Of a DNA stretch of 64,000 nt, positions 2,218-42,803 are shown piece by piece. The stretch lies in NCBI GenBank assembly GCA_030272585.1, contig BSYQ01000006.1, positions 4,737,001 to 4,801,000 on the forward strand, given 5' to 3'. The stretch's first letter is position 1. Each line of letters starts with the position of its first letter. This stretch comes from Bryopsis sp. KO-2023 (lineage: Eukaryota > Chlorophyta > Ulvophyceae > Bryopsidales > Bryopsidaceae). Under the pieces are notes generated by a model, which worked only from the letters and a program-made list of their open reading frames with translations, did not search any database and was not told the origin of the DNA. Made by a program: the position numbers and the translations under genes.

Positions 2218-3189
2218 CCACGAGCTAGAGCTGGGCTGTACCGTAACGACCCCCAAAACACGGTGCGAACCGTACCGTACCGTACCGTACCGTAAGGGGT
2301 CGTTACGGTACGGTATCGGATATTTTCACGTTACGGTACAACATCGGTACAGGGTCGGTACAATACGTTGTCGCCAATGACTGGCACCCGTTAAAGGGTC
2401 GTTGTTGCAACGTGTCATTGGCGTTGTTGTACCGCCCTAGACGGTTCGAGTAACGATGTTCGTTACAACAACGTAATGACGTTGCAATAACGTCATGTGG
2501 ATGACGTACAAAGTGACCCCCGCAAGGTCCCCAGAACCCAAGGGAACCGAGTGGGATTCGAACACCGTACCGCACGGTGCCGAGTCATCTACACTGAGCG
2601 CTAAGCCAAGTGGACCACGATGATTCTGTGGTTGTTGCAATGATATACCCCAATTTCACAGAATTACAAACAGATTAAGGTATATCATCGCAACAGCCAC
2701 AAAATCATCGTGGTCCACTTGGCTTAGCGCTCAGTGTAGATGACTCGGCACCGTGCGGTACGATGTTCGAATCCCACTCGGTTCCCTTGGGTTCTGGGGA
2801 CCCTGCGGGGGTCACTTTGTACGTCATCCACATGACGTTACTGCAACGCCATTACGTTGTTGTACCGACCTGGCCGTTGTTGTAACGTGTTATCGTTACA
2901 CGTAACGCAACCGATCGTTGTTGTAACGTCTTGCCTCGGTGCGGACGTTACAGCAGCCGGCGTAGACGTTACTGATAACGCACTGCGTTACAACAACGCT
3001 TTGGCGTTACAGTAATGTCTGATCGTTGTTGTACCGGACTTGGACGTTGTTGTACCGACTGGGTCGTTGTTGTAACGTGTGCAACGTGTTGTAACGTCCG
3101 GTCGGTGCGTGCACCGACCGGACACGTTACTGTACCGACCCTGTGCGTTACGGTACGGTGCGTTACAAACGGGTTACTGCCCAGCTCTG
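2218..3189. mobile_element. Word-palindrome element R1 (hAT-like ends, tRNA-like core)
   Basis: A non-coding insertion of about 970 bp in intron 1 of the Tnp2-like gene. The outer ends are inverted copies of YAGAGCTGGGC, and the word TCCGTGG(A/T) flanks it (2210-2217 and 3190-3197), which suggests an 8-bp target duplication. The left end seems to hold a short extra duplication. The arms are made of GTAACG/CGTTAC and TACGGTA words in both orientations. The centre is a head-to-head pair of tRNA-like modules. Confidence 0.6.
2517..2818. repeat. Head-to-head tRNA-like core of R1
   Basis: Two near-identical ~130-bp modules in inverted orientation around an AT-rich spacer (2640-2695). The right module has a pol III A-box-like TGGCTTAGCGC (about 2718) and a B-box-like GTTCGAATCCC (about 2766) some 45 bases apart. 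The left module has the same on the minus strand. The order is divergent, outward from the centre. The spacer is almost the reverse complement of that in R4 at 38518-39584. A proper clover leaf does not form, so this is tRNA-related and not a tRNA gene. Confidence 0.7.
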
Positions 3190-3999
3190 TCCGTGGTGCA
3201 CGCACAGGATGGGGATGCGGCTCTTTTCGAAGACGGCTTTGCTGATGACATTCCTGATGATTTTGCTGATGAACATGTTGAGGAGGGGGATGAAGAGGAA
3301 GAGGAGGAGGAGGAGGAGGAAGAGGAAGGGGAACAGGGAGACGAGGAGGAGGAGTTTGACGTACAGGGAAACGCCGTCCTCAGGCAACCCCTGTACGCCA
3401 CATGCAGCATGTCCCTTGTCCAGGTACGTGTGCGGCGCATTGTGACTTGTGTGCGGGGTTTTTTGACAACCCCGCACAGAGGAACTGGGACCCCTTCACA
3501 GGCAACCAGAAACCCCGCACAGAAGTCGTTTTACCTTATTCCCATCTCATTGCTCTTCTAACCCTTCTAACCTTCTGTTTCAGGTGATGATAGTCCTTTG
3601 GCATCTGAAAGTCCACTCGGGAATGACACGGGAGACATTCGAGACCCTTCTGAGGTTGATGGCCGCGGTACTTCCGAAGCCCAACTCCTTACCGACGACA
3701 TTCGCATCGTTCAAGGGGATGATGAAGGTGCGCCACCTGAAGAAACAAATCTACCTGATGTGTCAAAAGGGTTACCAAGCCTACAAGGAGAACAGGTAAG
3801 AGAAATGTCTGTGCGGTGTGAACGTACCTCTGTGCGGGGTTGTGTTGTCGTTGTGCCGGGTGAGGCTGATTAGGTTGTCGGATGTGTTTGTGGGCCAGGG
3901 GGCTTCTGTGCGGGGTCAAAGAAGCCCTGTGCGGGGTATAATGGCTGTTGTGCCGGGTCAGGCTGTAGCAAGAAAACAATAGAGAAAAAAAAGAAAAAA

Positions 4000-4737
4000 A
4001 AGTAAACCCACAAAATTCAGAATATAGCGGGACTCGAACCCACCACCAGCAAAGCTACAATCATACGTTCTAACAACGCAAACCAAGCGAACACGATATC
4101 CTTAAATCTAAACGCTTCCTATCACCCCCTTTAGCGTTATAACGCCTGATTAGGGGTTAACTCACAAACACTTACCCCCCCCACACACACCAATTGTGCT
4201 CTAAGGGAATCGAACCCTCGACCACACCGCCTAAGGTTATTCACCTTATCGGTGGAGCACCCTAAGCCACGATACTTCATCGATGTTAAGTTATTTTGTA
4301 ACACTCTTTTAATCTTATTTTTATAGAATTGCAAAAAAATTAAGGTATATTATTGCAACAGCAAAGATTCCGTCGTGGTCCGCTTGGATTAGTGCTCAGT
4401 GTAGTATGACTTGACACCGTGTGGGACGGTGTTCGAACCCTACTTGGTGCCCTTGGGTTTAGGTTTTGTATTCGTACAAGAGAACCCGTTTTAACCCGTT
4501 TCAACCTGTTTTCGGTTTTATTACGGTCTAGTAGAGCATAGCCACAGAAGCCCCTAAACAATTGTGGTGCGGTGGCCTAGAGTATTAGAGCGCATGGTTA
4601 TAGTCTTAAAGGTTGTAGGTTCGAATCTCAATAGGTTCTTATGAGTTTGGGGGTAGAATTGTGTGCCGTTGCAACGGTTTTCCGTGATCTGATCGGGGAT
4701 CGGAACAGTCGGTCTCCAGTGTCGGATCCCTAGTATG
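4000..4737. mobile_element. tRNA-like module array R2 in intron of Tnp2-like gene
   Basis: Four tRNA-like modules with TTCGA B-box-like cores: two on the minus strand (about 4022-4105 and 4195-4270) and two on the plus strand (about 4366-4450 and 4562-4640), arranged outward from an AT-rich centre near 4330. The right end, TCGGATCCCTAGTATGG (4722-4738), matches the right end of R4 (39569-39585) over 17 bases. I could not find the matching left end, so the left boundary is approximate. Confidence 0.5.
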
Positions 4738-8672: not shown

Positions 8673-9415
8673 TTTGGTTTCGGAGCAGGCGAGGCCAGGC
8701 GCACCCCACAGGAGAACTCGCGAACCCCCCCCAAAGATCTGACCTTAGGGATTACTAAATCCCACAGATCTGGAACTCTGTGTTCCAGGGGTCGCGAGGA
8801 GAGCTATCCTTCGAACGACGTGCTCGCGTCGTCGTTCGAAAACGTCAGGCGAAGTCGCAAAAGAATCGGAGTCCAGTGAACGAATTTCTGGAAACCTACA
8901 GATCTGTAGATCTAAAGGAAAACAAGGCGAAAGCACTACAACAGTGCAAGGAGAGCAACGATCGGCGTAAACCCGAAACGCGCAGGCGAACAACCGAAAG
9001 TGCGAACCGGCGTAGGAAAGAACGTCGTCCGGAACGACCAACTTCCGTCGACTGACGCTTCTGCCAGTAACACGAAAAACAGTCGTTCTGGCAGGTGACT
9101 CATTGTCACTCTTTCCAGCGCGCAATCGGTTACCGCACCGCCTGAGTCACGACTGGTTCTACAGGTAGTCGTAGACTGAATCACCGGCCAAGGTACTAAC
9201 CTAGTCGGCTGACAGAACGCGAACGGGAAAGTAACACCCGACGTTGTCAAGTGTAAAACTCCTATCTATTTCTGACCTAGTAAGGTTCAAGAAAAGATAG
9301 CGACTAGGATTGCAACCAGAACTGAAACAAGTTCGCATCCAAGTCACCAGAAAGTTTGGAAACTTTCCGGACACACTCCTATTACGTCAAAATTCCAGGA
9401 AATTCAAACAAAAAC
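8673..9415 (+). promoter_or_regulatory. Leader of element B with palindrome
   Basis: An untranslated leader of about 740 bases between the PBS and the gag ATG at 9416, with no long conserved ORF. At 8896-8909 lies the perfect 14-base palindrome CTACAGATCTGTAG. The leader of C has a different perfect 14-base palindrome at 28556-28569. By analogy with retroviral dimer-initiation loops, these may help pair two RNA copies. That role is inference. Confidence 0.45.
8675..8686 (+). other. Primer-binding site of element B
   Basis: TGGTTTCGGAGC starts two bases after the LTR. The same 12 bases follow the 5' LTRs of A (5667), C (28337), E (630-641, minus) and D (20786). It matches the plant initiator-Met PBS (TGGTATCAGAGC) at 10 of 12 positions, so the primer is either a variant initiator tRNA or another tRNA. 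Confidence 0.75.
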
Positions 9416-12253
9416 ATGTCCGGCCAGACGCCGCCACAGCTACCACCTATTCCACCTCCTGAGGAGGAAGAGGTGGTGGATAACCAACTAATTCCCGTGG
9501 TTTATCCAGATGTGGTGCACCCACCAGCGCAGCAAATACAGGATTTGCAGTGGGACAGACATGTACCCGACCAGGTTGAGGAACCGGACGAAGACTTAGA
9601 CTCTGAACAAGAGTCGGAAGAGTCCGGGGACGAGGAGTATGATGAGGATATGGAGGACGTCCCGACAATAGAAGTCACCAACATCCTTCACCATGAACAT
9701 CAGCACATAAACGTCCACCAGCAGGAGGTGCACGTTCATGGTGTGGACGAGGGACAACTTAGGGACACAGCTGAGCATGTGTATGCCGCTGTCTCCTCGA
9801 ATGTGCAAGAGGTCGCACAAAACCTGGAAGGACAAGTTCACGAGCAGGTTCAGCGTGCAGAGTCGACCTTAAAAGGCGACCTGAAAGAGGAATATGAGCA
9901 GTTCGTGCTCTATGTCAGGAAGGAGGCCCAGAAGCTGGTCAACCAAAATACTGAGTCTATAGAAAGACAACAGAAATTGTTAGACCACCAGCACAAATTG
10001 CTGGAACAGAATATAAAGTCCACAGAGCGGATCGACAGAAATCTGTTGGGTAAATACGATAACGAGGCTATTCTGCAAGAGCGACTCGATCGACTGCAGG
10101 AATCAGCCCGTACCCAAGCTGAAGCTGTTGATCAGACCAATGCGCTCAGGGAGAAACAAATTCTGTCTCTGCAAGCCTCTCTGACAAAAGTTGCTGAAGG
10201 TATGCGCCTACAGCAGACAACGCTGGATAACCTAGCTCGGACTACTGATGAGTCTCGGTGCGAGCAAGTCGACCACCAAGGCCAGCTAGACACACTCTCA
10301 GGCTTGGTAAGCCAGAGCCTAAAAGTGTTGCGGGACTTACACCAGGCCGAAGAACAACGCAAACAAAGAAGAGCGGAACGAGGCAGTGTGAGTTCTGATG
10401 ACACTGCAGGAGGACACAGGTCGATGCAACTGATGGAGAAATTTCTATCAGACGCGACAGAGAAACAGCAGACTTTGGAAAGTAATCTCTCCAAGTATGT
10501 TGATTCGAAGTTCAAAGAAACACTGAGTGCGTGGAAAAAACGGGAGAAAGTTCGAGTCCCGGCTCAGGACCCAGTTGTAGTGGGTATGATGGGAGCAGGA
10601 ACTGGCACGGTCACTTTGCCGGCCACGACAGCTGCAGCCACAAGCGTTCCTTTTGTGTCATCCACTCCTCTGACCAGTATCCCATTTCCGGTACCACCTG
10701 TTCCGGATCTGAGTACTTTTACTGGTCTAACCACGTTAGGAGGATTGGGTGGTCGCAGCCCATCGACAACTGTCGCAGACTCCGTGGGTGGAGGTTCTCC
10801 ATCTTCCTGGGGTTTATTTACATCCCCAAGAACACGGACGGCATGGAGTCTTGCGCCGCCACAAACTATGGCAATGGGCGCACCATTCGGCCAAGCGGGT
10901 CAACTTGGCACAGCCAGACCCATACTTAGTGTCCCTGTAACGAGTGTGTTACCACCAACGACATCCATGTTAACACAACCACTGACGACAGTTCCGCTGT
11001 CTGTCTTCTATCCAATCCCGGCTCTTAACACCCAACCTGGTATCCAACCAGGAAACCAACCAGGCACCCAACCAAGTTTGGGACAATCCGTAAACCAATA
11101 CGGAGCACCTTCCGCGAGTAACCCGTATTACGGGTGGGGTTCTTATCCCTTAACTCCATCAAGCCAGCCACAGGGTGGAAATCGATCTGGTGGTGGTGGA
11201 GGGGGACCCGGAGGTGGGCCTGGGGGTGGAGGCGGAGGCGGAGGAGGACCACCTGGAAGCGGAGGGGGATCTCTCCTTTCCGGACCAGGTGGAGGTGGGG
11301 GTGGTGGATGGCCGTACCACCCAGGTGGAGGTGGAGGTGGCGGAGGTGGAGGTGGGGGTCCTCCAGACCCTAACCAAGGCTTTGCTGCTCCGCAAGATCG
11401 CCACGGACGGATTCCGTCATCCGTTCGTATTCCTTTCCCAAAGGCCTTCTCAGGTTATGGTCAGCGATGGATCAGAGATTGGCAACTAGAAATGACGGTC
11501 TATTGCCAGACTTTGGACATCGATGAGAGCGTATGGTTCAGGCTCTTCCGCAGTAACCTGACCGGAGCTGCTGCTCAGTGGCGAAACGTCCAGGATCTGC
11601 GTACAAGGGAAGGAAAAAGACATCCAATCACAAATTGGATTGAGTTTGTTGAGGAACTGGTCCAAGCATTTGAACCCACCAGAATGTCTGATGTAGCCAG
11701 GCGCTCCTTACGGAACCTGAAACAGACTGGATCAGTGCACCAGTACATTGTTGCTTTCCGAGAACAAGTGCTGAGGATTCCCAACATGACAGATGAAGAA
11801 CAATACTTCTTCTTCGTGGACGGGTTAAAGTTCCATATCAAACAACAAACTGTGGCTCAAGTGCCGCACGGCATTGAGTTGGCGATCCAGACGGCGGCTC
11901 GTCTTGATGCTATTGCCTCATCCGGAGGAGGAAACTTTCGTGGCCGCGGACGGTGGCGCGGAGGTAAAGGCCGAGGCCAAAATAAAAAGCAAAACCAACC
12001 CCAGACTGATAAGGCAAACCAGATGGGTGGCCAACAGCAACCTCAGCCAGACCAGGCACAAAACATTGGCCAAGGTCGAGGTCGGGGAAGGGGTGGTGGC
12101 CGAGGTCGCGGACGAGGTGGTGGCAGGAATCAAGGACGTGGAGGTGGAGGCGTAAATCCTAAATGCTATATGTGTGGAAAAACTGGACATATTCAAAGTA
12201 AGTGTCCAGAGGGCGAAAAGTTCAAGAAATGGTTAAACGAAAAAGCCGGATGA
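9416..12253 (+). CDS. gag: Gag of element B (945 aa)
   Basis: The structural protein of an LTR retrotransposon, expected to form cytoplasmic particles. I chose the ATG at 9416 because it gives MSG..., like the Gag of C. Order: Pro/acidic N-terminus (1-90), long coiled coil (about 95-370), Pro/Thr/Ser-rich middle, Gly-rich blocks (about 590-660), Gag core with WIRDWQLEMTVYCQ (about 685) and FRLFRSNLTGAAAQW, an RG-rich tail, and the CCHC knuckle CYMCGKTGHIQSKC just before the end. The core plus knuckle is typical for Ty3/Gypsy. The ~600-residue N-terminal extension is far longer than usual. The last 25 bases overlap pol, which is in the -1 frame. Confidence 0.93.
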   Translation: MSGQTPPQLPPIPPPEEEEVVDNQLIPVVYPDVVHPPAQQIQDLQWDRHVPDQVEEPDEDLDSEQESEESGDEEYDEDMEDVPTIEVTNILHHEHQHINVHQQEVHVHGVDEGQLRDTAEHVYAAVSSNVQEVAQNLEGQVHEQVQRAESTLKGDLKEEYEQFVLYVRKEAQKLVNQNTESIERQQKLLDHQHKLLEQNIKSTERIDRNLLGKYDNEAILQERLDRLQESARTQAEAVDQTNALREKQILSLQASLTKVAEGMRLQQTTLDNLARTTDESRCEQVDHQGQLDTLSGLVSQSLKVLRDLHQAEEQRKQRRAERGSVSSDDTAGGHRSMQLMEKFLSDATEKQQTLESNLSKYVDSKFKETLSAWKKREKVRVPAQDPVVVGMMGAGTGTVTLPATTAAATSVPFVSSTPLTSIPFPVPPVPDLSTFTGLTTLGGLGGRSPSTTVADSVGGGSPSSWGLFTSPRTRTAWSLAPPQTMAMGAPFGQAGQLGTARPILSVPVTSVLPPTTSMLTQPLTTVPLSVFYPIPALNTQPGIQPGNQPGTQPSLGQSVNQYGAPSASNPYYGWGSYPLTPSSQPQGGNRSGGGGGGPGGGPGGGGGGGGGPPGSGGGSLLSGPGGGGGGGWPYHPGGGGGGGGGGGGPPDPNQGFAAPQDRHGRIPSSVRIPFPKAFSGYGQRWIRDWQLEMTVYCQTLDIDESVWFRLFRSNLTGAAAQWRNVQDLRTREGKRHPITNWIEFVEELVQAFEPTRMSDVARRSLRNLKQTGSVHQYIVAFREQVLRIPNMTDEEQYFFFVDGLKFHIKQQTVAQVPHGIELAIQTAARLDAIASSGGGNFRGRGRWRGGKGRGQNKKQNQPQTDKANQMGGQQQPQPDQAQNIGQGRGRGRGGGRGRGRGGGRNQGRGGGGVNPKCYMCGKTGHIQSKCPEGEKFKKWLNEKAG

Positions 12254-15200
12254 ACAGAGCCCAGACTCGTTCGGCGAAACGCAGAAGGGCACGCCGTCAC
12301 AGATATAAGCAGCGCCAGAAACTTCTTAGAAAAGAAAGGTTAGCTCGAAATGCAGAAGTGAATAAAAGAGCACAAGGGGAAATAGAAAAGAATGCTACCC
12401 AAGGTGCAGAGGGATCGATTATGAGTGCTAAGTTGGAAACTCGATCCAGTAAGTGCAGCACGCTTACTAGGACAAGTTCAGAATCAAGTTCGGAACCTGT
12501 CGACTCTGTTCATGGAGACCTTGGTAGTCCTGAAGGAACTGAGAATTCGGTATCGTTCCCGCCTCAAGGAACGAAACGAAGTCCGGAAGGAAGGGAACCC
12601 GCAAGGGAATCAAATAAGCCTGCCACTCGTTCACCACCAACTGACGAGTCAGCAGCCCCTGTTCAGGGAACAGGTAGAGGACAAAAAGTGGAAGAAGGTC
12701 AGTATTCACCTTCTGAGCGTATGTTACCACTAGGAGGTCCTAGCCATTTGAAATTTATGGGATATGAGATCCGAGCCAGATTAGGAGGAGTACCGATCTC
12801 CGCCTATGTTGATTGTGGTGCAACGGAGAACTACATTACCAAGAAACTAGTCACGAGACTGAAACTCGAAACAACCGAGTGCAAAAAGGGAGTTACTTTG
12901 GCGGACGGAACCCTATGTTCACTTGATCGGCGATGCGAAGACTTGCAGCTCAGGATGGGTACTTATACCACAACCCTTTCCGCAGACGTCTTCCCAAACC
13001 TTTCATATGACATGATACTAGGGCTTCCTTGGTTGATGCAGACCAATCCCAAACTGGACTTTGCAACAGGCACGCTCAAAGTTCCAGTGGGTGCTGGATG
13101 GACAACTGTTCCTATGAAGGAACGACCATCAGATTACTTACAGCACCTAGCACCGGCTATTGATACAGTCTCAGCGAAGAAGTTATTCTCGCTCGTGAAG
13201 AACAGTCCAGAAGTTGATCAGGCATACCTTGTGGTTGTGCGACCAACCACCCCGGACGATATGGCACATCTCATGCAGTATCCATATCCGGGAATTCCAG
13301 AAGAGCGTTTGAACGCTACTGGAACCACACCAGCTTATCTCCAGCCGGATGTGGAAAAGGTAATGCATTCGGGTCTCGACCCAAGGATCAAGGCTGTCCT
13401 CACAAGTTTCAAGGATGTGTTCCCGAAAGACTTACCACCCGGCGTTCCTCCAGTCAGAAAAGGCCACGAATTTAAGGTGGACCTGGAGGACGAACAAATG
13501 ACCCCAATCCACCGTCCCTTGTACAAACTCTCTCCAGCCGAGCTGGACGAAGTTAGGACACAGGTGGATTACCTCCTCGAACAAAGGAAGATCCGACCCT
13601 CCGAGAGTCCCTGGGGCGCACCCATACTCTTTGTTCCCAAGAAAGACGGAGGGTTGAGAATGTGTGTGGATTACCGTTGGATAAACAAATTCACGGTAAA
13701 GAATAGGTATCCACTCCCTCTTCCTGAGGAGTTAATGGACCGTCTCGCCAGAGCGAAGATCTATACGAAGATCGACCTCCGCTCAGGCTACTGGCAGTTT
13801 CCCGTTCGACCCAAGGATACTCCCAAGACGGCATTCCGGACGAGATACGGACATTTCGAATTTCTCGTGTGTCCGTTCGGAATGACCAACTGCCCAGCCC
13901 AGTTCCAGACCATGGTTCAGGATTTGCTGGGGGAGTTCCTTGACGAGTTTGTAGTGGTGTTTATCGACGACATCTTGGTCTTTTCCAACTCGGTGGAAGA
14001 GCACGTCGAGCACCTAAAACTGGTCTTTGAACGGTTGCGGAAACATAAGTTGTACGCAAAAGCCAGTAAGTGCGAAGTAGGGGTAGCAGAGACGGACTAC
14101 CTGGGGTATCATTTGTCGGAAAAAGGCCTTCAACCGATGCAGGATAAGGTTAAGGCTATTCAACAATGGAAGGAGTTAACTTCGGTCACTGATGTGCGAA
14201 GTTTCCTGGGAATGGTGTCTTACTATCGTAAGTTCATTCCTGAGTTCGCTAGGATTGCGAGTCCCTTGACAGATCTAACCAAGAAGGATACTGTCTGGGA
14301 ATGGGGGCTGAACCAACGCAATGCCTACAACGAACTTAAGGATCGGATTAGCCGCGCACCGATCTTACTCCTTCCTGATCCGGTTAAGGAGTACACCGTA
14401 ATAACGGATGCATCTGGAACTGCATATGGAGCGGTTCTTACCCAGGATCATGGGAAAGGTTTGCAACCAATTGCATACCTTTCCAGACGATTAAAACCAG
14501 CTGAAACGCGATACTCCGCATATGAGCGGGAGCTGGGGGCAATAGCATATGCTTTAGCCCAGTGGCGACACTACCTTGAGGGATGCGATGGGGGTGTGAA
14601 GGTGTTGACGGACCACAAACCGATCACCCACTTCATGAACCAGAGCACGTTGTCGCGGACCCAAACCCGGTGGTTAAACTCAGGGTTTTTCCAATCCATA
14701 GGTCCAAAAATCGTCTATATCCAGGGGAAAGCCAATGTCTTGGCTGATGCGTTATCCCGGAGCCTTCCTGGTCCGCCAGACCAGCTCAATAACCTCTCCA
14801 CTTGGGAAGTGGCAGAGAAGGAGGCATGGAAAGAGGCTTTGAGAAGTGATGAACAACTCAAGCCTATCTTTGAAAGGATGGAACGAGGGGTTTCTCCGCA
14901 ATACAAGCTGGACGACGGGTTCTTGTATTATACCAAGACAGACCCAGGTCCTAGTTTGCTTGTGGTCCCTGCTTCTTTCCAGAAACGGATTCTGGAAGAG
15001 CATCACGACGTTCCCAGTGCCGGTCATGTTGGAGCAGACCGCATGACCGAAGTACTTACCCGCAGTTACTGGTGGAAAGGCGTTGGGTTAGCCGTAAAGG
15101 CATACGTGAAAACGTGCCCAACTTGTCAACTAAACAAATCGGACTTGCAAAGACAGAAAGGTCTTTTGCAGCCGTTGCCTATCCCAGACCAGAAATGGGA

Positions 15201-16946: not shown

Positions 16947-19178
16947 ATGCCAAAGCACAGCCCGATCATGTGGCGCAGTGGTGATAAGGCGGTTGAGGGA
17001 AAGGAGTCGAGTGGAAAACAACTGGGTGGCAGCGGAAAAACGAAAGGCAGTGGCGGCGAGAAAGGCGGAAAAGGAAAAAGTGGAACTCTCGCCGACGCTT
17101 GCCCACCCAGAGGGGAACCCAAACCACTTATCACACCACCTAAGGCGAAAATCATGAAAACTCTCCCAGCTCCTTCGGTGCTTTCGAAACTTCGGAACTT
17201 CGAAACATCGCTGCTCAAAGGAACCTCCAAGATCGTAATTCGCCCACCGACAGAGTTGCCGGAAAAACTGCCGGAAAAACCTAGTTCCAGAACAGGAAAA
17301 ACACTCGACCGGGACGCCGACCCAGCTACTCTCCAAGCTAGGTGTCAACGGTTACAAGACGATGTGTTGGAACTCCGTGCAGAACGCGACGCACAACGCG
17401 CGCGGGCGGATCAGGCAGAGAAGCACCTGAAAAAGTTTGAGGGTGTAGCTCAAAGACTCTGCAATCAAGTAACCCAACTTGAACACGATCTGGAAATCGC
17501 CCGGCAGGCGAGAGGAACCGCTGAACAGGAGCTGAAACAGCTTCACAAAGAACTCGATTCTGCGAACCAGACGCAGAAGAAGCTGAAAGCGCAGCTGACG
17601 AAACAGCAGCCGCACCTGACCAGAGATAGGACTTGGGCCAAAATTCTGGTCCGGCTACGGTCCGGTCCGGTTACGGTCGAGTTACGGTTCCGTATTACGG
17701 CCGTAACTCCGTACCGTAACCGGAGTAATATGTTGTTTTTACGGTACGGAACAGGTACGGTATAGCTACGGTAGCCCCTAAATCATCGTGAAGTAGTGTG
17801 GTTCAGTGCTAAAGCATTAGGCTGTAGTCTGTAAGGTCGTGGGTTCGAATCCCCCTAGGTTCCTTTGGGTTCTTGGGACCCTGCGGGGGTTACTATTTAC
17901 GGTTTACGGTTGGTACGGTGGTTACGGTCGGTACGGTCCGGTACCGGAGCAGTACGGAGTGGTACGGTGGTCCGGTTCCGAGCACGAAAACCACTCCGGT
18001 CCGGACCGTAACTACCGTAACCGTAAGTGACCGGAGTGGGGTTACGGTACGGTTTACGGTACCGTAACCGGAAAGTCCTATCTCTGCACCTGATGTCCAC
18101 AGACGAAAGGTCGGCCTGGCAAACGGCTGTGTACTCGTCCGAGGCACAGTCCGGGTTGATGAGCCGGTTGCTCCACAGCGTTCCCGCACGCCTTGGGGAC
18201 TATGTGGAAAACCTTTGTCGGGCGACGATGGACGACATCATCGAGCAGGGTGCTGGAGCTGCTGCTGCGATCAGAGACGGAGAGGAGCCGGTCTACTACG
18301 GCAAGGGAAACGTTCCGGTTAACCACCGGCTTGCCGGGTATGACTATGCGCAGGTGGACAAAACGCTCGATAGAATCAGAAATCGTGCACCGGGGCACTT
18401 TGACGTTCCCGACGTTGCAGACGATATGATCTCAGAGCCACAACCCAGGAGAATCCGCGACCTGACCGGGGGACAGACCGGGGGAAAGACCGACGAAAAG
18501 TCGGCGCCCAAGAAAAGGAAGGAGAGAGAGGAAGAGGAGGCGCTCGCCGACATGTCCAAGAGGTTCAAGGACAGGCGTGGGGAAAAGCCACCGATCTGCT
18601 TGTGGTGCTATTCGCCGCCGGCGCTGGCGGATAGCTACGTGATCACCACATGCACGAGCCACACGGTGTGCCGAACCCACTGGAACCTCATGATTATCCT
18701 CGTGCGCTTATACGGGGTGTGGCAGGAACAGCGAATCGACCCGCCACAGGTTCAGCTGAAGGACCTACATTTGGACATGCGGGAGCCAGACTTCCAGCCA
18801 CTCCTTCAGGCTCCACCCACGACCCAGACTCTCACCGAGTGCTATCAGTGCTTGCGAAGGGACATGGGCTTTCCGAAAGGCCTTGCCCTGAAGCGCTTGG
18901 GTCCGTTGGTGAAAAAGTGGGCGGAGGAGTATGAGAAGCAGGAAAAAGAGAGAACACCCGAACCAGAAACAAAAGGAGAACAGGACCCAGAACAGGACGA
19001 AGGAAAAAGTCCTTCCGTGTCCAGCAAGAGTCCATCCTCGGAGCCCTCGTCTTTGGGACCTCTTCCTCCACCTTTGGATGAGGATTTCCCTCCTTTGGAT
19101 GTGGATGAGGACGAGCCTCCGATCGACTTGGTGGCAGAGCCAGTCGATGCACCAGCTGAACAACCAGCTGGCGGCTGA
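16947..19178 (+). pseudogene. ORF3 of element B, broken by a hAT-like insertion
   Basis: Two open parts in the same frame, 16947-17620 and 18095-19178, are separated by the 466-bp element R3 plus one target copy (474 bases, a multiple of three). The insert brings a stop at 17763. The first part is basic/Lys-Gly rich and then a coiled coil (about residues 120-220, heptads with RAERDAQRARADQAEKHLK). The second part has a Cys/His cluster: CLWC, 14 residues, CTSHTVCRTHW, and later CYQC. The same spacing occurs in ORF3 of C. The C-terminus is acidic and Pro-rich. I know no family. The position after pol is where env-like genes sit, but I see no signal peptide or membrane segment. Confidence 0.75.
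17621..18086. mobile_element. hAT-like word-palindrome element R3 with a tRNA-like module
   Basis: A 466-bp insertion. The inverted ends are CAGAGATAGGACTT and AAGTCCTATCTCTG, flanked by CACCTGAC (17613-17620) and CACCTGAT (18087-18094), an 8-bp duplication with one mismatch. Ends of the form YARNG and 8-bp duplications are typical of hAT. The arms consist of TACGGT/ACCGTA and CCGG words. One tRNA-like module (about 17800-17870, B-box-like GGTTCGAATCC) leads into TTGGGACCCTGCGGGGGTTAC, which is shared with R1 and R4. It has no coding capacity. Confidence 0.8.
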
Positions 19179-31817: not shown

Positions 31818-34800
31818 AGGAGACTTCACTCCATGCGGCCAGAAGAAAAAGAGCCAGACGCCGAAGATATAGACATCGCAGACGTCAGAAGCTCCGGGAG
31901 TCACGAGCAAGAGAACGAGAGGGGAATAAAAAGACCGAGAAAGAGTCAAAAAGAAATCCCGCCCAGAGGGCTGAAAATCCGCTGATGAGTACAAAACTTG
32001 GTGACAAAGAGCGGATGGATGATTCAAGTACGGTCATCCTAAGCACTTCCGGCAGAGAGTTGGCGGAAAGTGTTGGTTCAGTACATGAAGACTCTGGAAG
32101 TTCCTCCGGAGATAGCAACCTGGAATCTGTCCCGCCTTGTGGAGAGAAACAGGCTTCGGAAGGAAGTGTAAAAAGTTTAGACCGGACCAGCCCAAGGGTT
32201 CCGTCTGACGCCGATGCAAGGGAGGCATCGGACAGAAAGAAACAACCAGGGGTTGAAGGTGGGGATTACCTTCAAGACAGTTTTAACCCGCTGGTAAATA
32301 ATCACCACCTTAAGTTCATGGGATATGAGCTTAAGGGGCGGATAGGGGGAGTTTCAATCTCCGCTTATTTGGACTGTGGAGCTACGGAAAATTATGTAGC
32401 GCAGAAACTTGTGGATCGTTTGGGGTTAGAGTTCTCCTCGTGTAATAAGACCGTTTCATTAGCCAACGGGTCTGTTTGCAATGTGGACAAACGATGCGGA
32501 AACATCAACATGCAGTTGGGCGGATACAAAACCCAGTTTTCTGCGGATGTTTTTCCTCATCTCACATATGACATCGTGTTAGGGTTACCGTGGCTCATCG
32601 CCAATAACCCGTCCATAGACTTTGCACAGGGAACTATCAACATTCGCCAAGGTCAAGGTTGGATAACAGTACCGGTAAAGGAAAGACCGACTGATTATCT
32701 TCAACTTGCGAATGAAACCACACCTCTCATCACCCACAAGAAGATATTCCGCTACATCAAGAAGCAAACTGAAGCCACAGATAGTTTGGCTTACTTGGTG
32801 GTGGTGCGTGAATCTGACCCCACGGATAGCAATCACTTGATGCAATATCCGTATGAGGGGGTAACCGTTGATAGCCTTCAAACTTCAGCGGGCACCAACA
32901 CACCACAAGAGACGGAGGTACCGAAGTTGCTGCATGATCAGATGCACCCGGATATCCGCTCTGTGGTGGAGGAATATAGCCACATTTTTCCAAAAGATCT
33001 CCCGCCTGGCATACCTCCCGTCCGCAAGGGTCATGAATTTAAGATCGACCTTGAGGATGAGAGTATGAGCCCAATCCACCGTCCCCTGTACAAACTTTCT
33101 CCGGCTGAATTGGATGAAGTTCGGACACAAGTGGATTATCTCCTCGAGCAACGGAAGATTAGGCCGTCAGAGAGTCCCTGGGGAGCTCCCATACTCTTTG
33201 TCCCTAAGAAAGACGGCGGACTGCGGATGTGTGTTGATTACAGATGGATCAACCACTACACCATTAAAAACCGCTATCCACTTCCGCTCCCCGAAGAGTT
33301 AATGGACCGGCTCGCGAAAGCAAAGATCTACACCAAGATCGACCTCCGCTCGGGCTACTGGCAATTTCCAGTCCGGCCAAAGGATACCCCAAAAACTGCA
33401 TTCCGCACACGATACGGGCATTTCGAGTTCCTCGTTTGTCCCTTCGGAATGTCCAACTGTCCGGCCCAGTTTCAGACTATGGTGCAGGATTTGTTGGGGG
33501 AGTTTTTGGACCACTTTGTGGTTGTTTTCATTGACGACATTCTGGTGTTTTCCAATTCAGTGGAAGAACATGTCGATCATTTGAAACAGGTATTCGAGCG
33601 GTTACACAAACACAAGCTCTACGCGAAAGCGAGCAAGTGTGAAGTGGGGGTCAGCGAGACCGATTATCTGGGATATCATTTGTCAGGAAAAGGCCTGCAA
33701 CCAATGAGTGATAAAGTGCGGGCTATTCAAGAATGGAAGGAGTTGAGCTCAGTTGGGGATGTGCGAAGTTTTCTGGGCATGGTATCTTACTATCGTAAGT
33801 TTATACCAGAGTTTGCGCGGATTGCAGGACCCTTACATGATCTGATCAAAAAGAATCATGTGTGGACATGGGGGCCTATTCAGCGCGAAGCCTTCAGCAA
33901 ACTCAAGCAAAAGATCACCCGCACCCCCATACTTCTCCTACCCGATCCGCTTCTTAGGTACACCGTAATAACGGACGCATCAGGAACTGCATATGGAGCA
34001 GTTCTGTGTCAGGACCATGGAAAGGGGCTACAGCCAATAGCCTACCTTTCAAGACGATTAAAACCAGCTGAGACACGATATTCCGCATATGAGCGGGAGC
34101 TGGGGGCTGTAGCATATGCGCTCAGCCAATGGCGGCATTACCTCGAAGGAGCGCCTGGGGAGGTTACGGTTCTGACAGACCATCAGCCGATAACCCACTT
34201 CATGACCCAAGCTAAAATGTCGCGGACACAATCCCGATGGTACACGTCAGGGTATTTTGATTCCATAGATCCAAAAATCGTCTATGTGCCTGGTAAAGCC
34301 AATGTACTGGCGGATGCGTTATCCCGAAGCCTTCCTGATTCACAGGATCAACTTCATGCTTTGTCCGCCTGGGTGGTGGATGAAGCGGATGCATGGAAGA
34401 CCGCTATTGCAGCAGATCAAAAACTGCAAGCGGAAGTCGCGAAAATCCAAGAGGGTAAACCCACGAAACTTTCGTTCGAGGATGGCTGGTTGTACTATCA
34501 AGCAACTCCCACCTCAGACAAAGTACTAGTGGTTCCAAATGGATACCGGAAAAAGGTTATGGGGGAGTTCCATGATGTTCCGAGCGCTGGACACGCAGGT
34601 GCCGCCCGGACATCGGATGTGCTACAGCGATACTACTGGTGGAAAGGAGTTGGAAAGGATGTCCAAGCATATGTGCGGACATGTCCTGTCTGTCAGCGGA
34701 CAAAAGCTGATACGACGAAGCAGAAAGGGCTTCTGCATCCACTCCCGATACCGACAACAAAGTGGGAACAGATCACCACTGACCTCGTGACTGATTTACC

Positions 34801-35902
34801 AAAGTCACGTGGGTTCACCGCCATCGCGGTATTTGTTGATCGGTTAACCAAGTACGTTCGCTTCGCACCCTGCACTAAGGAAATAACCGCCCCGGAATAT
34901 GCTAAGTTGTTTGTGGACAAAATATACAAACACTATGGCCTCCCCAAAGTGATAATTTCCGATCGAGACCCCAGATTCACAAGTTCCTTCTGGCGGTCTT
35001 TATTTTCACTTCTGGGAACCCAACTCCGAATGAGCACAGCCTACCACCCACAAACAGATGGGCAGTCAGAGGTTACTATTCGGGTGTTGGAAGACTTTTT
35101 GCGGCCTTATGTGGAGCGGTATCCAGACCGCTGGGTTGATTTCTTGGCGACAGCGGAATTTGCTGCCAACAACTCCCGCAATGTGTCAACCGGCTATGCC
35201 CCAGCACACTTGTTGTATGGGCAGCATATGGGACAAATTACCGTGCAGAAAAAGTTAACGGCGAAAGAAGAGTCCGAAATGGCAACCGAAATGGTGAAAC
35301 GAATGGACGAGCAACTGCAGCAGGCAAAGCAGCAGTATGCAACCGCACAAGAGCGGATGTGTGTCCAAGCGAACAAACGGCGGCGGGAAGTAATCTTCAA
35401 AGAAGGGGATGAAGTTTTGGTGCGGAGTACATTTATTCCGCTGCAATCCTTACAAAAGATCCCACCAAAAATCCGCCGGAGGTTTGTCGGGCCATTCAAA
35501 GTGGACAAAGCGATATCCACAGTCGCTTATCGCCTGCAACTACCACCCCATTGGACTATTCATTCTACCTTCCATGTCTCCAAGCTGAAGGCATACAACC
35601 GCTTGTCAGAAGATGATGAGCGGGAGGTGGAACCTCCCGAAGGGGAGTTGGTGGATGGCGCCATTGAATATGAGGTCGAGCGTATTCTGCGGGATCGAGG
35701 TACACCCAACCGTCGGGAGTACTTGATTCTGTGGAAGGGCTATGATTTGATGGAAGCCACCTGGGAGCCAGAAGCCCACCTGGCCAATGCCAGCGATATC
35801 TTGGCAGAGTATCTCAGAAACCGCACGCGCTTGCCGACCAAAGAAGAAATCCGCTCTAAGCGGGAAGAAAGGCGGACAAGGCGGCGGAAACAACCTCTTT
35901 AG
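31793..35902 (+). CDS. pol: Pol of element C (1369 aa): PR, RT, RNase H, IN, chromodomain
   Basis: In the -1 frame relative to gag. The ATG at 31793 has the strong context AAAAATGGC. A highly basic N-terminus (RRKRARRRRYRHRRR). Protease ~190 with YLDCGATENY. RT FIDDILVFSNSVEEH ~578. RNase H VITDASGTAYG ~725 and VLADALSRS. Integrase zinc finger (FHDVPSAGHAG ... CPVCQ, ~925-964), DDE residues in TTDLVTDLP (~995), SDRDPRF (~1056) and DGQSEVT (~1092), GPF motif, and chromodomain EYLILWKGYDLMEATWEPE (~1305-1335). All catalytic residues that I can check are present and no stop is seen, so the copy may be active. Confidence 0.96.
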   Translation: MAKRSRRIEETSLHAARRKRARRRRYRHRRRQKLRESRAREREGNKKTEKESKRNPAQRAENPLMSTKLGDKERMDDSSTVILSTSGRELAESVGSVHEDSGSSSGDSNLESVPPCGEKQASEGSVKSLDRTSPRVPSDADAREASDRKKQPGVEGGDYLQDSFNPLVNNHHLKFMGYELKGRIGGVSISAYLDCGATENYVAQKLVDRLGLEFSSCNKTVSLANGSVCNVDKRCGNINMQLGGYKTQFSADVFPHLTYDIVLGLPWLIANNPSIDFAQGTINIRQGQGWITVPVKERPTDYLQLANETTPLITHKKIFRYIKKQTEATDSLAYLVVVRESDPTDSNHLMQYPYEGVTVDSLQTSAGTNTPQETEVPKLLHDQMHPDIRSVVEEYSHIFPKDLPPGIPPVRKGHEFKIDLEDESMSPIHRPLYKLSPAELDEVRTQVDYLLEQRKIRPSESPWGAPILFVPKKDGGLRMCVDYRWINHYTIKNRYPLPLPEELMDRLAKAKIYTKIDLRSGYWQFPVRPKDTPKTAFRTRYGHFEFLVCPFGMSNCPAQFQTMVQDLLGEFLDHFVVVFIDDILVFSNSVEEHVDHLKQVFERLHKHKLYAKASKCEVGVSETDYLGYHLSGKGLQPMSDKVRAIQEWKELSSVGDVRSFLGMVSYYRKFIPEFARIAGPLHDLIKKNHVWTWGPIQREAFSKLKQKITRTPILLLPDPLLRYTVITDASGTAYGAVLCQDHGKGLQPIAYLSRRLKPAETRYSAYERELGAVAYALSQWRHYLEGAPGEVTVLTDHQPITHFMTQAKMSRTQSRWYTSGYFDSIDPKIVYVPGKANVLADALSRSLPDSQDQLHALSAWVVDEADAWKTAIAADQKLQAEVAKIQEGKPTKLSFEDGWLYYQATPTSDKVLVVPNGYRKKVMGEFHDVPSAGHAGAARTSDVLQRYYWWKGVGKDVQAYVRTCPVCQRTKADTTKQKGLLHPLPIPTTKWEQITTDLVTDLPKSRGFTAIAVFVDRLTKYVRFAPCTKEITAPEYAKLFVDKIYKHYGLPKVIISDRDPRFTSSFWRSLFSLLGTQLRMSTAYHPQTDGQSEVTIRVLEDFLRPYVERYPDRWVDFLATAEFAANNSRNVSTGYAPAHLLYGQHMGQITVQKKLTAKEESEMATEMVKRMDEQLQQAKQQYATAQERMCVQANKRRREVIFKEGDEVLVRSTFIPLQSLQKIPPKIRRRFVGPFKVDKAISTVAYRLQLPPHWTIHSTFHVSKLKAYNRLSEDDEREVEPPEGELVDGAIEYEVERILRDRGTPNRREYLILWKGYDLMEATWEPEAHLANASDILAEYLRNRTRLPTKEEIRSKREERRTRRRKQPL

Positions 35903-38517: not shown

Positions 38518-39584
38518 CATACTAGGGATATGATAGGCAATGATCGGCCTGCTAAAAATAGGTCTAAACGGGATCGGATCGGGATCGGATTTTCACTAAT
38601 GTCTATTATAGGGTGATACAAAAATAATCGGTTTTTTTTTTTTTTTTTTTTTACCGATCATGATCGGTGCCGATCATCGGTGATCGGTGTCTTGATCGGA
38701 CCGATTAATCGGGATCGGCGACCGATCCGATCAAAGAACGGCGTCGGCCGATCCCGATCCCGATCCGATCAAGGCGCGGAGCTGTGATCGGAATAGTCGG
38801 CCGATCAAAGTCGGCGTTTTTTTTTTGATCGGTACAATGATCGGGGAGAACCGATCATGATCGGTATGAAAGGCGCGAAGTCGGTGAATTTGATAAATTT
38901 CCGATCAGATCGAATCTGCCGATCACCCACCGATCCCGATCCGATCATGATCGGAAATCGGGTGACGCGCAAAGTAACCCCCGCAGGGTCCCCAGAACCC
39001 AAGGGAACCGAGTGGGATTCGAACACCGTACCGCACGGTGTCGAGTCATCTACACTGAGCGCTAAGCCAAGTGGACCACGATGATTATGTGGCTGTTGCG
39101 ATGATATACCTTAATCTGTTTGTAATTCTGTGAAATTAGGGTATATTATTGCAACAACCACAAAATCATCGTGGTCCACTTGGCTTAGCGCTCAGTGTAG
39201 ATGACTCGACACCGTGCGGTACGGTGTTCGAATCCCACTCGGTTCCCTTGGGTTCTGGGGACCCTGCGGGGGTTACTTTGTGCGTCACCCGATTTCCGAT
39301 CATGATCGGATCGGGATCGGTGGGTGATCAGCAGATTCGATCTGATCGGAAAACGCCGATCCCGATCCCGATCCGATCTGGTTTCCGAGGCAGAATTGGG
39401 TGATCGGCCGATTTTGATCGGAAAAGTCGGACCGATTTTTGTGATCGGTCCGATTTTGATCGGTGATCGGTTTGATCGGACCGATCTGATCGATGATCGA
39501 TTTGATCGGAAATTACGGGTGCCGATCTTGATCGGAGATCGGTTTGATCGATGACCGACAGATCGGGATCGGATCCCTAGTATG
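38518..39584. mobile_element. Word-palindrome element R4 (GATCGG arms, tRNA-like core)
   Basis: 1067 bp. Inverted ends CATACTAGGGAT and ATCCCTAGTATG, with GCAGCAGC on both sides (38510-38517 and 39585-39592). The duplication is inside a CAG run, so it is weak evidence alone. The arms are dense in GATCGG/CCGATC in both orientations. The core (about 38970-39275) is a head-to-head pair of tRNA-like modules almost the same as in R1, with the central spacer reversed. It has no coding capacity. Confidence 0.7.
38970..39275. repeat. Head-to-head tRNA-like core of R4
   Basis: The right module (from about 39160, plus strand) has TGGCTTAGCGC and GTTCGAATCCC, A- and B-box-like, and ends in GGGACCCTGCGGGGGTTAC. 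The left module is its inverted copy. Between them lies the AT-rich spacer with TATACC and GGTATA. Compared by eye, most positions agree with the R1 core. Confidence 0.7.
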
Positions 39585-39592: not shown

Positions 39593-40788
39593 AGCAGCAA
39601 TCCAAATATTGCAAGAAGAGGAGCTCTGGAAACTCAAGAGCAGAGAAAGGATATTTCAGTGTGCGGAAGAGAGATTTGAAAGAAATAAAATAAAAAAAGA
39701 ATGCTGATTTTTCAAGAGATTATTCAGTGACTTGGAGGTGAATGAATGGTTCAAAGAAAGAGCATGATTAGTTGTCCTTTCACCTGGTTTGAGAAAAGAT
39801 ATATATGAGCAAAGGAAAACATTGGTGGAATACTTGATGGACAGAAGTATATTTTTGGAGTGATACAAGATGATTTTCTGAATGTTAAAGGATTTTCTTT
39901 TCAGCCAGATGTTTTTCATTTTCATTTTCAGTTTGAAGTAAAGAGATGATTTTCTCGATTTTATGGACAAAGCGAAAGAAAATATTATGCCAGTCTCGTA
40001 CTCTTTTCGTGTTTGGACACTGAAAGATATTCTGATTTGGATTGTGAGATGCCTTATGGATTGTGATACTTTATGCAACGGGTTTTATTTGAGACATGCT
40101 CTCCACGGCAGTGTTGGAACTTACTGCCAACCTGGTGGGGAGGAATGTAACGGTTGGTTATCGCAGCACTCGAGCTGGAACTACAAGAGTAGTTGCCATG
40201 CTTCCTGCAGCTGAAAAAGAGAAGGTTGCAAGAGTGCAACGTGTAGGAGCAGCGTGCGAGAGTGCGGCGTGTAGGAGTGCAGCGTGCAGCGGTGGATGCA
40301 GCGTGCAGCAGTGCAGCAGTGCAGAGGTGCAGCAGTGCAGAGGTGCAGAGGTGCAGAGGTGCAGCGGTGCAGGTGCAGCGGTGCAGAGGTGCAACGGTGT
40401 AATCGTGCAGCGGTGTAACACCCTTGGAGCCACGATTGCAACCAAGCTCGACGGAGTTTGATGGATGATGATGTGGCAGCCATCAGAGTCGAGTTGTCGA
40501 TTGGATGTGTGAATTCTTATGGACGTTCACAGTTGAGGTGGCGAGGAGATGTGTGAATTCCTAGTGAATAGTGACACGTCGACAGGGAGAAGGGTTTGAT
40601 GCGCTGTGGCGCTAGGGTATAAGAGTGTGGAAGGAAAAGGTCGTTGTATCTTCTTTATAACTTTATTCGTGTAAGGAAGTTCTATCTAACGAGACGCTTG
40701 AGGAAGGCACTCGTCCTCCTCTAGGAGGGCGAGGGGACCTTGAAAAAAGTAGCCTCGTTTCACTAAGCTACCATTGATGTGTTCGTAG
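39593..40788. repeat. Gene-poor stretch with a GTGCAG tandem region
   Basis: AT-rich DNA without a gene that I can support. At about 40240-40420 lies a degenerate tandem repeat of GTGCAGC/GTGCAGAG units. A PPT-like GGTGGGGAGGAA followed by TGTAAC at 40133-40150 and a TATA-like sequence near 40617 hint at an old LTR, but I found no second copy. Confidence 0.5.
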
Positions 40789-41363
40789 GTGGGGCTTCTC
40801 TCTTCCGGGGTGGACGGTGGGCGACCTGCTGCCATACGCCATCCACCGGACTTTCCGGGTCACTCGAGACACGATCCAGGGACGCGAGGAGTTTTTTGCG
40901 ACTGGGTGGTCCTCCACGGAGCGAGGTATTAACCTCAAACCGTGTTGCACACTCAAATTTTGGTAAAGGGAATCTCCCCAAGAGTGGTATATTACCTGCT
41001 ATGAGCTATTGTTTTAAAATGTTGTGTTTTGCAGGTGACGACTCGACGTGTCTTTACGTCGAGTACGAGGACGACGAGGGCAGGAAGACGATGTACGGGG
41101 GACACGTCCGTGCCTTGTACACTGTCCGGGATGCTGGGTTCGGACGGTGTCCCCCTCGGGTCGTTGCGATGGTGGACTTGTACCAGCTCGTCTACGTGGA
41201 TGCTCGATTCAGGCAGGGTCGTCCGGTCAGGCTCACGAACTTGTTCAAGACGAGGGGGAGAAAGCTTGAGGGTTATCCGGTGCTCTTGGAGGACGCCTTG
41301 TCGAAGCTGATGTGTTTGAGGGAGGGCCAGTCGAGATATTATTGTTTTTACACAGGGGTTTGA
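40789..41363 (+). pseudogene. Two terminal exons of an unrecognised protein, possibly a Tnp2-type transposase C-terminus
   Basis: Exon 40789-40925 starts after TAG and encodes GFSLPGWTVGDLLPYAIHRT... Exon 41035-41363 starts after GCAG and joins in phase. It encodes LYVEYEDDEGRKTMYGGHV, then VVAMVDLYQLVYVDARFRQG, and ends at TGA 41361-41363. A small beta-rich domain with YG..V and a VDLY-like strand near the end is seen in many Tnp2-type transposases, so this could be the tail of such a gene, even the displaced end of the one at 1865-5495. That is inference. The upstream exons are not visible. Confidence 0.4.
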
Positions 41364-41511
41364 TGTTGGGTGTTTCGTTCTTTCTTTATTTTCATTTTTG
41401 TCCTTTTTTGTGTTATAATCCGACGGCCGTAACATTTTATCTATGTTCTTCAACATAACGATCACGAAGCTACACTTGAAGCCAACACTCAGATAAACTT
41501 AAAGTCGCAAG

Positions 41512-42803
41512 CAGACGTGGGCGCCGGCAAGTTTTAAAGGACCGGACCGGACCGGAAAACCTGTCTTGGACCGGATTTGACCTTTCTTAGACAGGTCAAA
41601 CCGGTCTGGAAAGGTCAAATCCGGTCTAAGAAAGGTCAAATCCGGTCTAGTAAAGAACACCTTTCTTAGACCGGATTTGACCTTTCTAGACCGGTCTGAC
41701 CTGTCCAGACAGGTTGTCGCCTGTCTGGACAGGTCATACTCGTGTGACCTGTTTTAGACCGGTGTGACCCTGTTTTAGACCGGTGTGACGCCTAGTGTGA
41801 CCTGTTTTAGACCGCCTCCAGGTCGGTCTGGACAGGTGGGCTGCCTGTCCAGACCGACCTGGAGCCTGTCTAGAACAGGTCGCACAATTAAGCACATAAC
41901 TGGGAATCAATCAGTTGGGAAGTGATTGAATTAATTAAAGCACCAAGTAATACTATTATACATATTTTTAGTGGATGAATAACGTGAGCCAAGCTCACCA
42001 GCCACCGACTAGAGGGAGTCGGTCGACTCTAGGAGGACTCGAACTCAGGTTGGCTAAGTCCGAGTCAAGAGCACTATAAGGTAGCGGACCCCACCATAGG
42101 GACGCTCAAATGGGGTCCGCTACCTTTAAGTACCTACTTTTTGTAATAAAAAATAACGGGTACTTAAAGGTAGCGGACCCCATATGAGCGTCCCTATGGT
42201 GGGGTCCGCTACCTTGTAGTGCTCTCGACTCGGACTTAGCCAACCCGAGTTCGAATCCTCCCAGAGTCGACCGACTCCCTCCAGTCGGTGGCTGGTGAGC
42301 TTGGCTCACGTCATTCATGCAATGAAAATACATGTAACAATATTATTTGTTGTTTAATTAATTAACTCAGTTCCCAGTCAATTGATACACAATTGGCACG
42401 TTAAAAGTGCTTAATTGTGTGACCTATTCTAGACAGGCGCCAGGTCGGTCTGGACAGGCAGCCCACCTGTCCAGACCGACCTGGAGCCGGTCTAAAACAG
42501 GAGAACAACCCTGTCAAGACAGGGTCGTTCCGGTTTTAGACAGGTCACATCGCCGGTCTAATAAAGGCGAAATGTGGGTGTGACCTGTCTAAAAACGGAA
42601 AATCTGTCAGAAAACCGGTCCAGATTTCTGCAGATTTCCGAGGTTGACTGGACCGGAGTGGACAGGACCGGACAGGTCGCAACCTGTCCGGTCTTGCAAG
42701 GACCGGCGTTTTTTCGTAGGACCGGACAGGTCGGCCGGTCCTTAGACAGGTTGGACCGGACCGGACCGGTTTTTCGCTGCCGGTCCGGTCGGGCCCAGGT
42801 CTG
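41512..42803. mobile_element. hAT-like word-palindrome element R5 (CCGGTC arms, tRNA-like core)
   Basis: 1292 bp, bounded by a perfect 8-bp duplication GTCGCAAG (41504-41511 and 42804-42811). The inverted ends are CAGACGTGGGC and GCCCAGGTCTG (10 of 11 paired). The arms repeat CCGGTC/GACCGG and CCTGTCTAGACAGG-like words in both orientations. The core (about 41985-42310) is an inverted pair with TTCGAATCC/GGACTCGAA boxes and an inner inverted repeat GGTAGCGGACCCCA/TGGGGTCCGCTACC. It has no ORF of note. Confidence 0.85.

What the first reader, a model, noticed from the sequence alone, without database searches (positions are those of the whole stretch)
2218..42803. Word-palindrome elements: same tRNA-like core, but each with arms of a different short word
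R1 (2218-3189), R2 (4000-4737), R3 (17621-18086), R4 (38518-39584) and R5 (41512-42803) have tRNA-like modules, mostly head-to-head, flanked by arms that repeat one word and its complement: GTAACG, TACGGT, GATCGG, CCGGTC. R1 and R4 cores are nearly the same over about 280 bases although their arms share no word. The arms must therefore be replaced or re-amplified much faster than the core. I know of no described family with this behaviour.
Basis: seen in the sequence. Interest (0 to 1): 0.88.

Follow-up and report, generated by a model that had tools for sequence, protein, structure and literature searches.

The report
hAT mini-transposons sharing tRNA-like promoter cores
These are small, protein-less jumping genes of the hAT class: the repeated words in their arms are the calling cards of several different parent transposons, and a two-way tRNA-like promoter cassette appears to have been passed between their middles.

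Summary
R1, R3, R4 and R5 are non-autonomous hAT transposons; R2 is an old remnant copied along with a host intron. Of 55 elements with both ends found, 47 have a perfect 8-bp target duplication. The words are explained: each arm type matches the end zones of its own hAT family, like the hexamer arrays of Ac/Ds. Arms do not evolve faster than cores: in five R4-family copies identity is 0.990, 0.982 and 0.986 for left arm, core and right arm. R1 and R4 differ because they descend from different hATs. What remains unusual is the core: tRNA-like modules with TATA-like leader, A box and B box, mostly head to head. The same core lies between different words (R1 and GATCGG; R5-type core next to CTGTGC words), the word GATCGG goes with two different cores (in sister families), and core and left-arm trees conflict, so parts recombine. 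The one parent read in full (R3 type) has no core. Pol III activity is inferred, not shown. Verdict: new variant of a known kind (Ds-like hAT elements), with an exchangeable pol III-type cassette that seven literature searches did not turn up.

The parts
2226..3189 (+). R1: non-autonomous hAT element, TIR TAGAGCTGGGC (family: CAGAGCTGGGC) .. GCCCAGCTCTG; arms CGGTAC/CGTTAC
   Evidence: own flanks damaged: TCCGTGGA 2210-2217 vs TCCGTGGT 3190-3197 with 8 extra bases at 2218-2225 (read by eye)
2499..2829 (.). R1 core: head-to-head tRNA-like modules
   Evidence: 40 places at 95% or more in the genome, the 40 scored of 494 candidates
2554..2564 (-). R1 left module B box; A box 2598-2608 (-), TATA-like 2644-2649 (-)
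   Evidence: sequence; alignment
2765..2775 (+). R1 right module B box; A box 2720-2730 (+), GGTATA 2679-2684 (+)
   Evidence: sequence; alignment
2830..3189 (+). R1 right arm, CGTTAC word array
   Evidence: 14 words vs shuffle mean 1.67, max 6; 2892-3189 is 94.3% identical over 298 bp to L072, the 3' flank of a hAT-domain hit
4026..4737 (.). R2: degenerate remnant with four tRNA-like B-box-like sites (about 4030 -, 4205 -, 4431 +, 4619 +) and one R4-type terminus ATCCCTAGTATG at 4726-4737; left limit not determined
   Evidence: copies share the surrounding host intron
17621..18086 (+). R3: non-autonomous hAT element, TIR CAGAGATAGGACTT, one tRNA-like module (B box 17843-17853), arms TACGGT
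   Evidence: duplication CACCTGAC/CACCTGAT, one mismatch; transposase-bearing relative L088
38518..39584 (+). R4: non-autonomous hAT element, TIR CATACTAGGGAT, arms GATCGG, duplication GCAGCAGC (inside a CAG repeat, so weak by itself)
38960..39290 (.). R4 core, head-to-head modules (B boxes 39015 -, 39226 +)
41512..42803 (+). R5: non-autonomous hAT element, TIR CAGACGTGGGC..GCCCAGGTCTG, duplication GTCGCAAG, arms CCGGTC/CCTGTC
41990..42325 (.). R5 core, head-to-head modules (B boxes 42035 -, 42249 +)

Best explanation
Each element is a non-autonomous hAT transposon (Ds-like, MITE-sized). The terminal inverted repeats and the arms, packed with a family-specific word in both orientations, are the end zones of one hAT family; by analogy with Ac the words are the transposase binding sites. 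The middle is not hAT sequence but a tRNA-like pol III-type promoter cassette (TATA-like leader, A box, B box, conserved GC-rich tail), mostly duplicated head to head so that both copies point outward into the arms. The cassette has moved between elements of different hAT families by recombination or gap repair in the repeat-rich arms. Shown: ends, target duplications, related transposase-bearing elements, shared cores, conflicting trees, loss of a core. Inferred: transposase binding of the words; pol III transcription; a benefit of the cassette (for example keeping the element's chromatin open); the exact exchange reaction and its direction.
For: Target duplications perfect in 47 of 55 elements with both ends. 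hAT C-terminal domain PF05699: 150 scored hits; it is found again in the 3 C-terminal parent exons rescanned (an upstream ORF of L088 had no Pfam hit). Parents: R3 type, L088, 5,066 bp end to end with R3 TIRs, duplication CTCACGGC and 18 and 20 words in its ends; R1 type, arm match in L072 plus an R1 5' terminus 4.2-5.2 kb upstream in 5 of 6 listed copies of that domain group; R4 type, 784-aa hAT between CATACTAGGGAT ends, arms of R4 88% over 368 bp and 92% over 248 bp, duplication GTTGTATC read by eye; R5 type, L075, 78% over 196 bp. Same core, different arm words: R1/R4; R5-type core beside CTGTGC words in L124 and L125. Same word, different core: L089, L090, L092-L094, L096 and the insert in L086 vs R4. 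In the core tree a 95/91 branch puts three R1-arm cores with L080 on one side and the other 29 R1-arm cores with the five 784-type GATCGG cores and L001 on the other, while the one of the three with a scorable left arm (L081) lies inside a 100/100 left-arm group with 13 of the others. Core loss: L095, duplication intact, arms joined at a 114-bp overlap.
Against: No RNA data. The A-box region is not well conserved between R1 and R3 modules (11 of 20), and the modules do not score as tRNA. No T4 terminator follows the modules closely in most of the 14 arms checked (nearest 16 and 57 bases; several arms have none), and outward vs inward T4 runs, 21 vs 36 over seven elements, give no firm asymmetry. 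L095 and L091 show that elements without a recognisable core have moved. The trees are shallow: few starred branches, bootstrap not settled, long branches for L001 and L080, one flipped copy in the left-arm tree; starred branches force only one change per group. R5's 5' parent terminus was not found in L087. The ends of the L124/L125 elements were not read.
Confidence: 0.85

Rival explanations
1. Rival only on the meaning of the core: it is a passive passenger, a tRNA-derived SINE that once inserted into a MITE and now hitchhikes, as V-SINE did in MER6. Its presence in several families is accident plus recombination, without benefit.
For: Modules have A- and B-box-like stretches and a conserved tail; precedent MER6 (PMC6887750, abstract and passages); two elements without a recognisable core have moved.
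Against: No free copy of these modules in 16 regions around GTTCGAATCCC sites on C1 chosen as not obviously paired: 4 were R3-type elements, 4 share another repeat, 8 gave nothing recognised (small sample). At least three kinds of head-to-head core (R1/R4, L096 and R5 types) is much coincidence. Of 18 MITE-sized pairs of R4-type ends among the first 100 of 572 places, 14 carry a core (8 read, 3, 3), 2 lack it (read), 2 undetermined.
Confidence: 0.45
2. One reading: one element family whose arms are re-amplified or hypermutable, changing word while the core is conserved.
For: R1 and R4 cores 95.5% identical with unrelated arms; the R1 left arm varies more (0.921) than its core (0.969).
Against: Arms match separate hAT families; within-family arms are otherwise as conserved as cores; TIRs differ between families.
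Confidence: 0.04
3. Functional host tRNA gene pairs, or host boundary elements, that happen to be carried by transposons.
For: TATA-like leader, A and B boxes in order.
Against: No tRNA call by ARAGORN or Rfam in the window or the loci scanned; cores lie between transposon ends.
Confidence: 0.03

Closest known systems
Ac/Ds (hAT) of maize, Ds2 and other Ds elements
   Same: 8-bp target duplications, short TIRs, end zones with many copies of a short word that the transposase binds (AAACGG), unrelated filler inside (PMC3260210, passages)
   Different: Here the filler is a tRNA-like cassette shared between several hAT families, often head to head
MER6 MITE carrying a V-SINE (Tc1/Mariner)
   Same: A SINE-derived sequence inside a MITE (PMC6887750, abstract and passages)
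   Different: MER6 lacks the SINE's tRNA head and belongs to another superfamily; the passages I saw mention no head-to-head pair and no exchange between families
tRNA-derived SINEs
   Same: A-box and B-box-like stretches, tRNA-like head, conserved tail
   Different: No free copies or own target duplication seen in a small sample; moves inside hAT ends
Foldback elements (recalled, from no call)
   Same: Long inverted ends built from short repeated units
   Different: Here the ends belong to hAT families with transposase-bearing relatives; the strong palindrome is central

Membership tests
hAT superfamily | 8-bp target site duplication | tested here: met
   47 of 55 perfect, 1 with one and 1 with two mismatches, 6 with five or more (where several ends were possible the script kept the best); R5 GTCGCAAG read by eye; window R1 has no clean duplication
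hAT superfamily | related transposase with PF05699 between the same ends | tested here: met
   R3 type end to end (L088); 784- and 839-aa groups between R4-type ends by position and end reads; R1 type by position; R5 type one end only
hAT superfamily | short TIR of hAT type (consensus recalled) | tested here: met
   CAGAG/CAGAC for R1, R3, R5; R4's CATACTA[GT]GGAT is less typical but encloses PF05699 elements
Ds-like non-autonomous element | word-rich end zones shared with the autonomous relative | tested here: met
Ds-like non-autonomous element | mobilised by the relative's transposase, which binds the word | not testable with these tools
   needs an assay
tRNA-derived SINE | internal pol III promoter boxes | tested here: inconclusive
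   TATA-like leader and B box aligned in 15 modules of ten elements, A box less conserved; function not tested
tRNA-derived SINE | free copies with own target duplication | tested here: inconclusive
   none of these modules free in 16 sampled regions; small sample of one contig
tRNA gene | cloverleaf recognised by ARAGORN or Rfam | tested here: not met

The most novel reading that the evidence does not exclude
A divergent pol III-type promoter cassette acts as an interchangeable engine of hAT mini-transposons: several hAT lineages in one genome have taken up or exchanged it because TFIIIC/pol III occupancy keeps the element open to transposase or shields it from silencing, while the transposons' own word arrays, which also fill putative introns of the transposase genes, set the family identity.
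Probability: 0.3. Interest if true: 0.78.

Novelty: new variant of a known kind. Interest (0 to 1): 0.6.

Why it matters
It gives a clear case where transposon ends and interior evolve as exchangeable modules, with the parents at hand, so the exchange route can be reconstructed. If the cassette helps, it would be a pol III promoter put to use by DNA transposons, a mirror image of SINEs. The word arrays of the hAT groups in this genome (six different words seen, two of them, in L074 and L077, on one side only) are also a natural table of candidate transposase binding specificities.

Tried and rejected
Rfam and ARAGORN for true tRNAs: nothing. miRNA-like Rfam hits at 41595-41700 and elsewhere lie below gathering scores; I read them as hairpins of the element. 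Terminator asymmetry: inconclusive. Viral contigs: no exact match to one 29-base core stretch. Organism: the Gypsy protein search gave plant, animal and metagenome-type records, the closest by identity (59-64% over 99-100% of the query stretch) from metagenome-type records; organism not identified. Papers: seven searches; I saw listings for all, passages of PMC3260210, PMC3849761 and PMC2374699, and abstract plus passages of PMC6887750. Nothing I saw describes tRNA-like cores shared by hAT elements, but the library omits most subscription papers.

Dropped rows: 5 repeat reads of the same loci were removed before the core tree (39 of 44 rows). For the arm trees 30 of 32 right arms (L028, L079 lost) and 21 of 32 left arms were scorable; the window R1, L078 and L079 are among the left arms lost. 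In one search the R1 arms used 28 and 22 of 29 copies; the three flipped copies were not in that set.

Limits: only the best 40 candidates are scored per DNA search (150 for the PF05699 search) and at most 100 places listed per pattern search, so copy numbers are lower bounds and contig C1 is over-sampled. The 14 control genomes (0 hits) are unnamed in the answer and may be no fair control for a eukaryote. The word for the R1-parent intron in L026 is weak (3 vs shuffle maximum 3). 'Intron' for the word-rich stretches in L087, L088 and L026 rests on position and splice-like borders, not on transcripts.

After the filing check I corrected: which side of the core-tree branch the GATCGG_784 cores lie on; that the two cores with the word GATCGG sit in sister families, not one; that L072 and L075 are flanks of domain hits; SINE rows set to inconclusive.
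Full report
Observation. The window is part of a 91-Mb assembly in 28 contigs, eukaryotic by content (Gypsy elements).

What bounds the elements. R1-type copies end in CAGAGCTGGGC/GCCCAGCTCTG, R3 in CAGAGATAGGACTT, R4 in CATACTA[GT]GGAT, R5 in CAGACGTGGGC/GCCCAGGTCTG. Of 55 elements of the first three types with both ends in the fetched loci or the window, 47 have a perfect 8-bp duplication, 1 has one mismatch, 1 has two and 6 have five or more (one of the 55 is the transposase-bearing L088). R5 has GTCGCAAG on both sides. This is the signature of hAT transposons. Window R1 itself has damaged flanks and a changed first base, and is not among the 55.

What the words are. The hAT dimerisation domain PF05699 gave 150 scored hits of 185 candidates. 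Groups of these hits carry the ends of our elements. R3: 24 of the 28 loci L040-L067 show the exact R3 end within reach, and L088 runs from end to end, 5,066 bp, duplication CTCACGGC, with 18 and 20 words in its two ends. R1: L072, the 3' flank of a domain hit, matches the R1 right arm at 94.3% over 298 bp; 5 of the 6 listed copies of that group have an R1 5' end 4.2-5.2 kb upstream, and in the sixth an R1 mini-element abuts what looks like its 5' arm. R5: L075, 78% over 196 bp. R4: the 784-aa group, 88% over 368 bp and 92% over 248 bp; sister elements such as L096 match the ends around an 839-aa hit at 87% over 379 bp and 95% over 265 bp. Those two parents also show 8-bp duplications by eye, GTTGTATC and ACGACGAC. 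Two more hAT hits have other words beside them (CTGTGC in L077, GGATA in L074, ends not established). [quoted passage not shown] I infer the same role here. The parents of R1, R3 and R5 share 37-51% identity over 60-92 residues of the transposase end.

Are arms faster than cores? No. In five R4-family copies mean identity is 0.990 (left arm), 0.982 (core), 0.986 (right arm). In the R1 family core is 0.969 (29 copies), right arm 0.985 (28), left arm 0.921 (22); the left arm comes in distinct variants.

What the core is. In 15 modules from ten elements the invariant or nearly invariant stretches are GGTATA about 30 bases before the tRNA-like start, CGTG at that start, GTTCGAA of the B box, and, in all but R2, much of the tail. 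R1 and R3 modules agree at 69% overall against a shuffle maximum of 58%; by block 11 of 11 in the B box, 30 of 37 in the tail, 25 of 35 in the leader, 16 of 25 before it, 12 of 15 after the B box, but only 11 of 20 in the A-box region and 15 of 32 between the boxes. So R3's single module is a distant relative of the R1 module, and the A box is the least supported promoter part. L096-type elements have another head-to-head pair, with a TATATAAT leader and a Ser/Leu-looking start (my reading), and R5 a third. None is a tRNA by ARAGORN or Rfam in what was scanned.

Exchange. The same core type lies in R1 arms and in three GATCGG subfamilies (784 type, L001, L080). The word GATCGG also goes with the Ser-like core, in the sister family of the 839-aa parent. 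R5-type cores in L124 and L125 keep an inner CCTGTC stretch but have CTGTGC words further out; that outer stretch has only 23- and 32-bp matches to L077 in L124 and none in L125, so the donor is not pinned down, and the ends of these copies were not read. In the core tree a 95/91 branch puts L078, L079 and L081 (R1 arms, spacer inverted) together with L080, and the other 29 R1-arm cores together with the five 784-type cores and L001; in the left-arm tree L081 lies inside a 100/100 group with 13 others. Counting by hand, two or three transfers between R1 and GATCGG arms explain the core tree, but its starred branches force only one change per group and the bootstrap had not settled. I take this as good, not final, evidence. 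L095 shows loss of a core between homologous arm stretches. Nesting is seen: R3-type elements sit inside the cores of L092 and L097, and an R4-type element with Ser-like core inside the arm of an R1 copy in L030.

Do parents carry the core? No B box or tail was found in L088 or in the 39 hAT loci L039-L077, which mostly cover only the 3' side. Two 839-aa elements on C1 with both ends contain no GTTCGAATCCC by position. Others were not read in full.

How it most likely works. A hAT transposase recognises ends and words and moves the element; the core rides along. The recurrent divergent pol III-type layout in several families makes a benefit plausible, but elements without a recognisable core have moved, so it is optional. 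Of 18 MITE-sized pairs of R4-type ends among the first 100 of 572 places, 14 carry a core, 2 do not, 2 are undetermined. Transcripts from the modules would mostly run far into the arms, since T4 runs are distant or absent in most of the 14 arms checked.

R2. It has an R4-type right end and four module remnants, but its copies share the surrounding intron, so they spread with the host sequence.

Novelty. hAT elements with word-rich ends and filler are known; SINE pieces in a MITE are known (MER6). A tRNA-like divergent cassette shared and exchanged among several hAT families did not turn up in seven searches of this library.

Noticed in passing
L087 about 620-905 and 2740-3050; L088 about 3080-3385: Stretches between transposase ORF segments are packed with the family's own word (CCTGTC 15 and 19 vs shuffle maxima 3 and 4; ACGGT 12 vs 8), so the word seems to fill putative introns as well as ends.
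   Followed up: partly
L092 566-1029; L097 688-1152: R3-type elements inserted inside the tRNA-like cores of two other elements, with perfect 8-bp duplications; possible insertion preference.
   Followed up: partly
G000 C4 6097600, 6143190, 6189034, 6235568: Four R5-type core hits 45-47 kb apart, perhaps a tandem segmental duplication.
   Followed up: no
L105-L108: Another repeated tRNA-like unit with a GTTCGAATCCC box, with no match to the reference elements used here.
   Followed up: no
L085 about 650-1140: An R1 copy whose core centre holds an inserted stretch with two further tRNA-like sequences.
   Followed up: partly
window 9356-16317 and 28851-35902: Two Ty3/Gypsy retrotransposons: the first with gag, RT, integrase and chromodomain by Pfam, the second by its gag and by 73% similarity to the first.
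   Followed up: partly
window 45869-45994, also around 960-1440 and 3440-3960: CCCGCACA-type words in tandem or scattered in apparently non-coding stretches.
   Followed up: no
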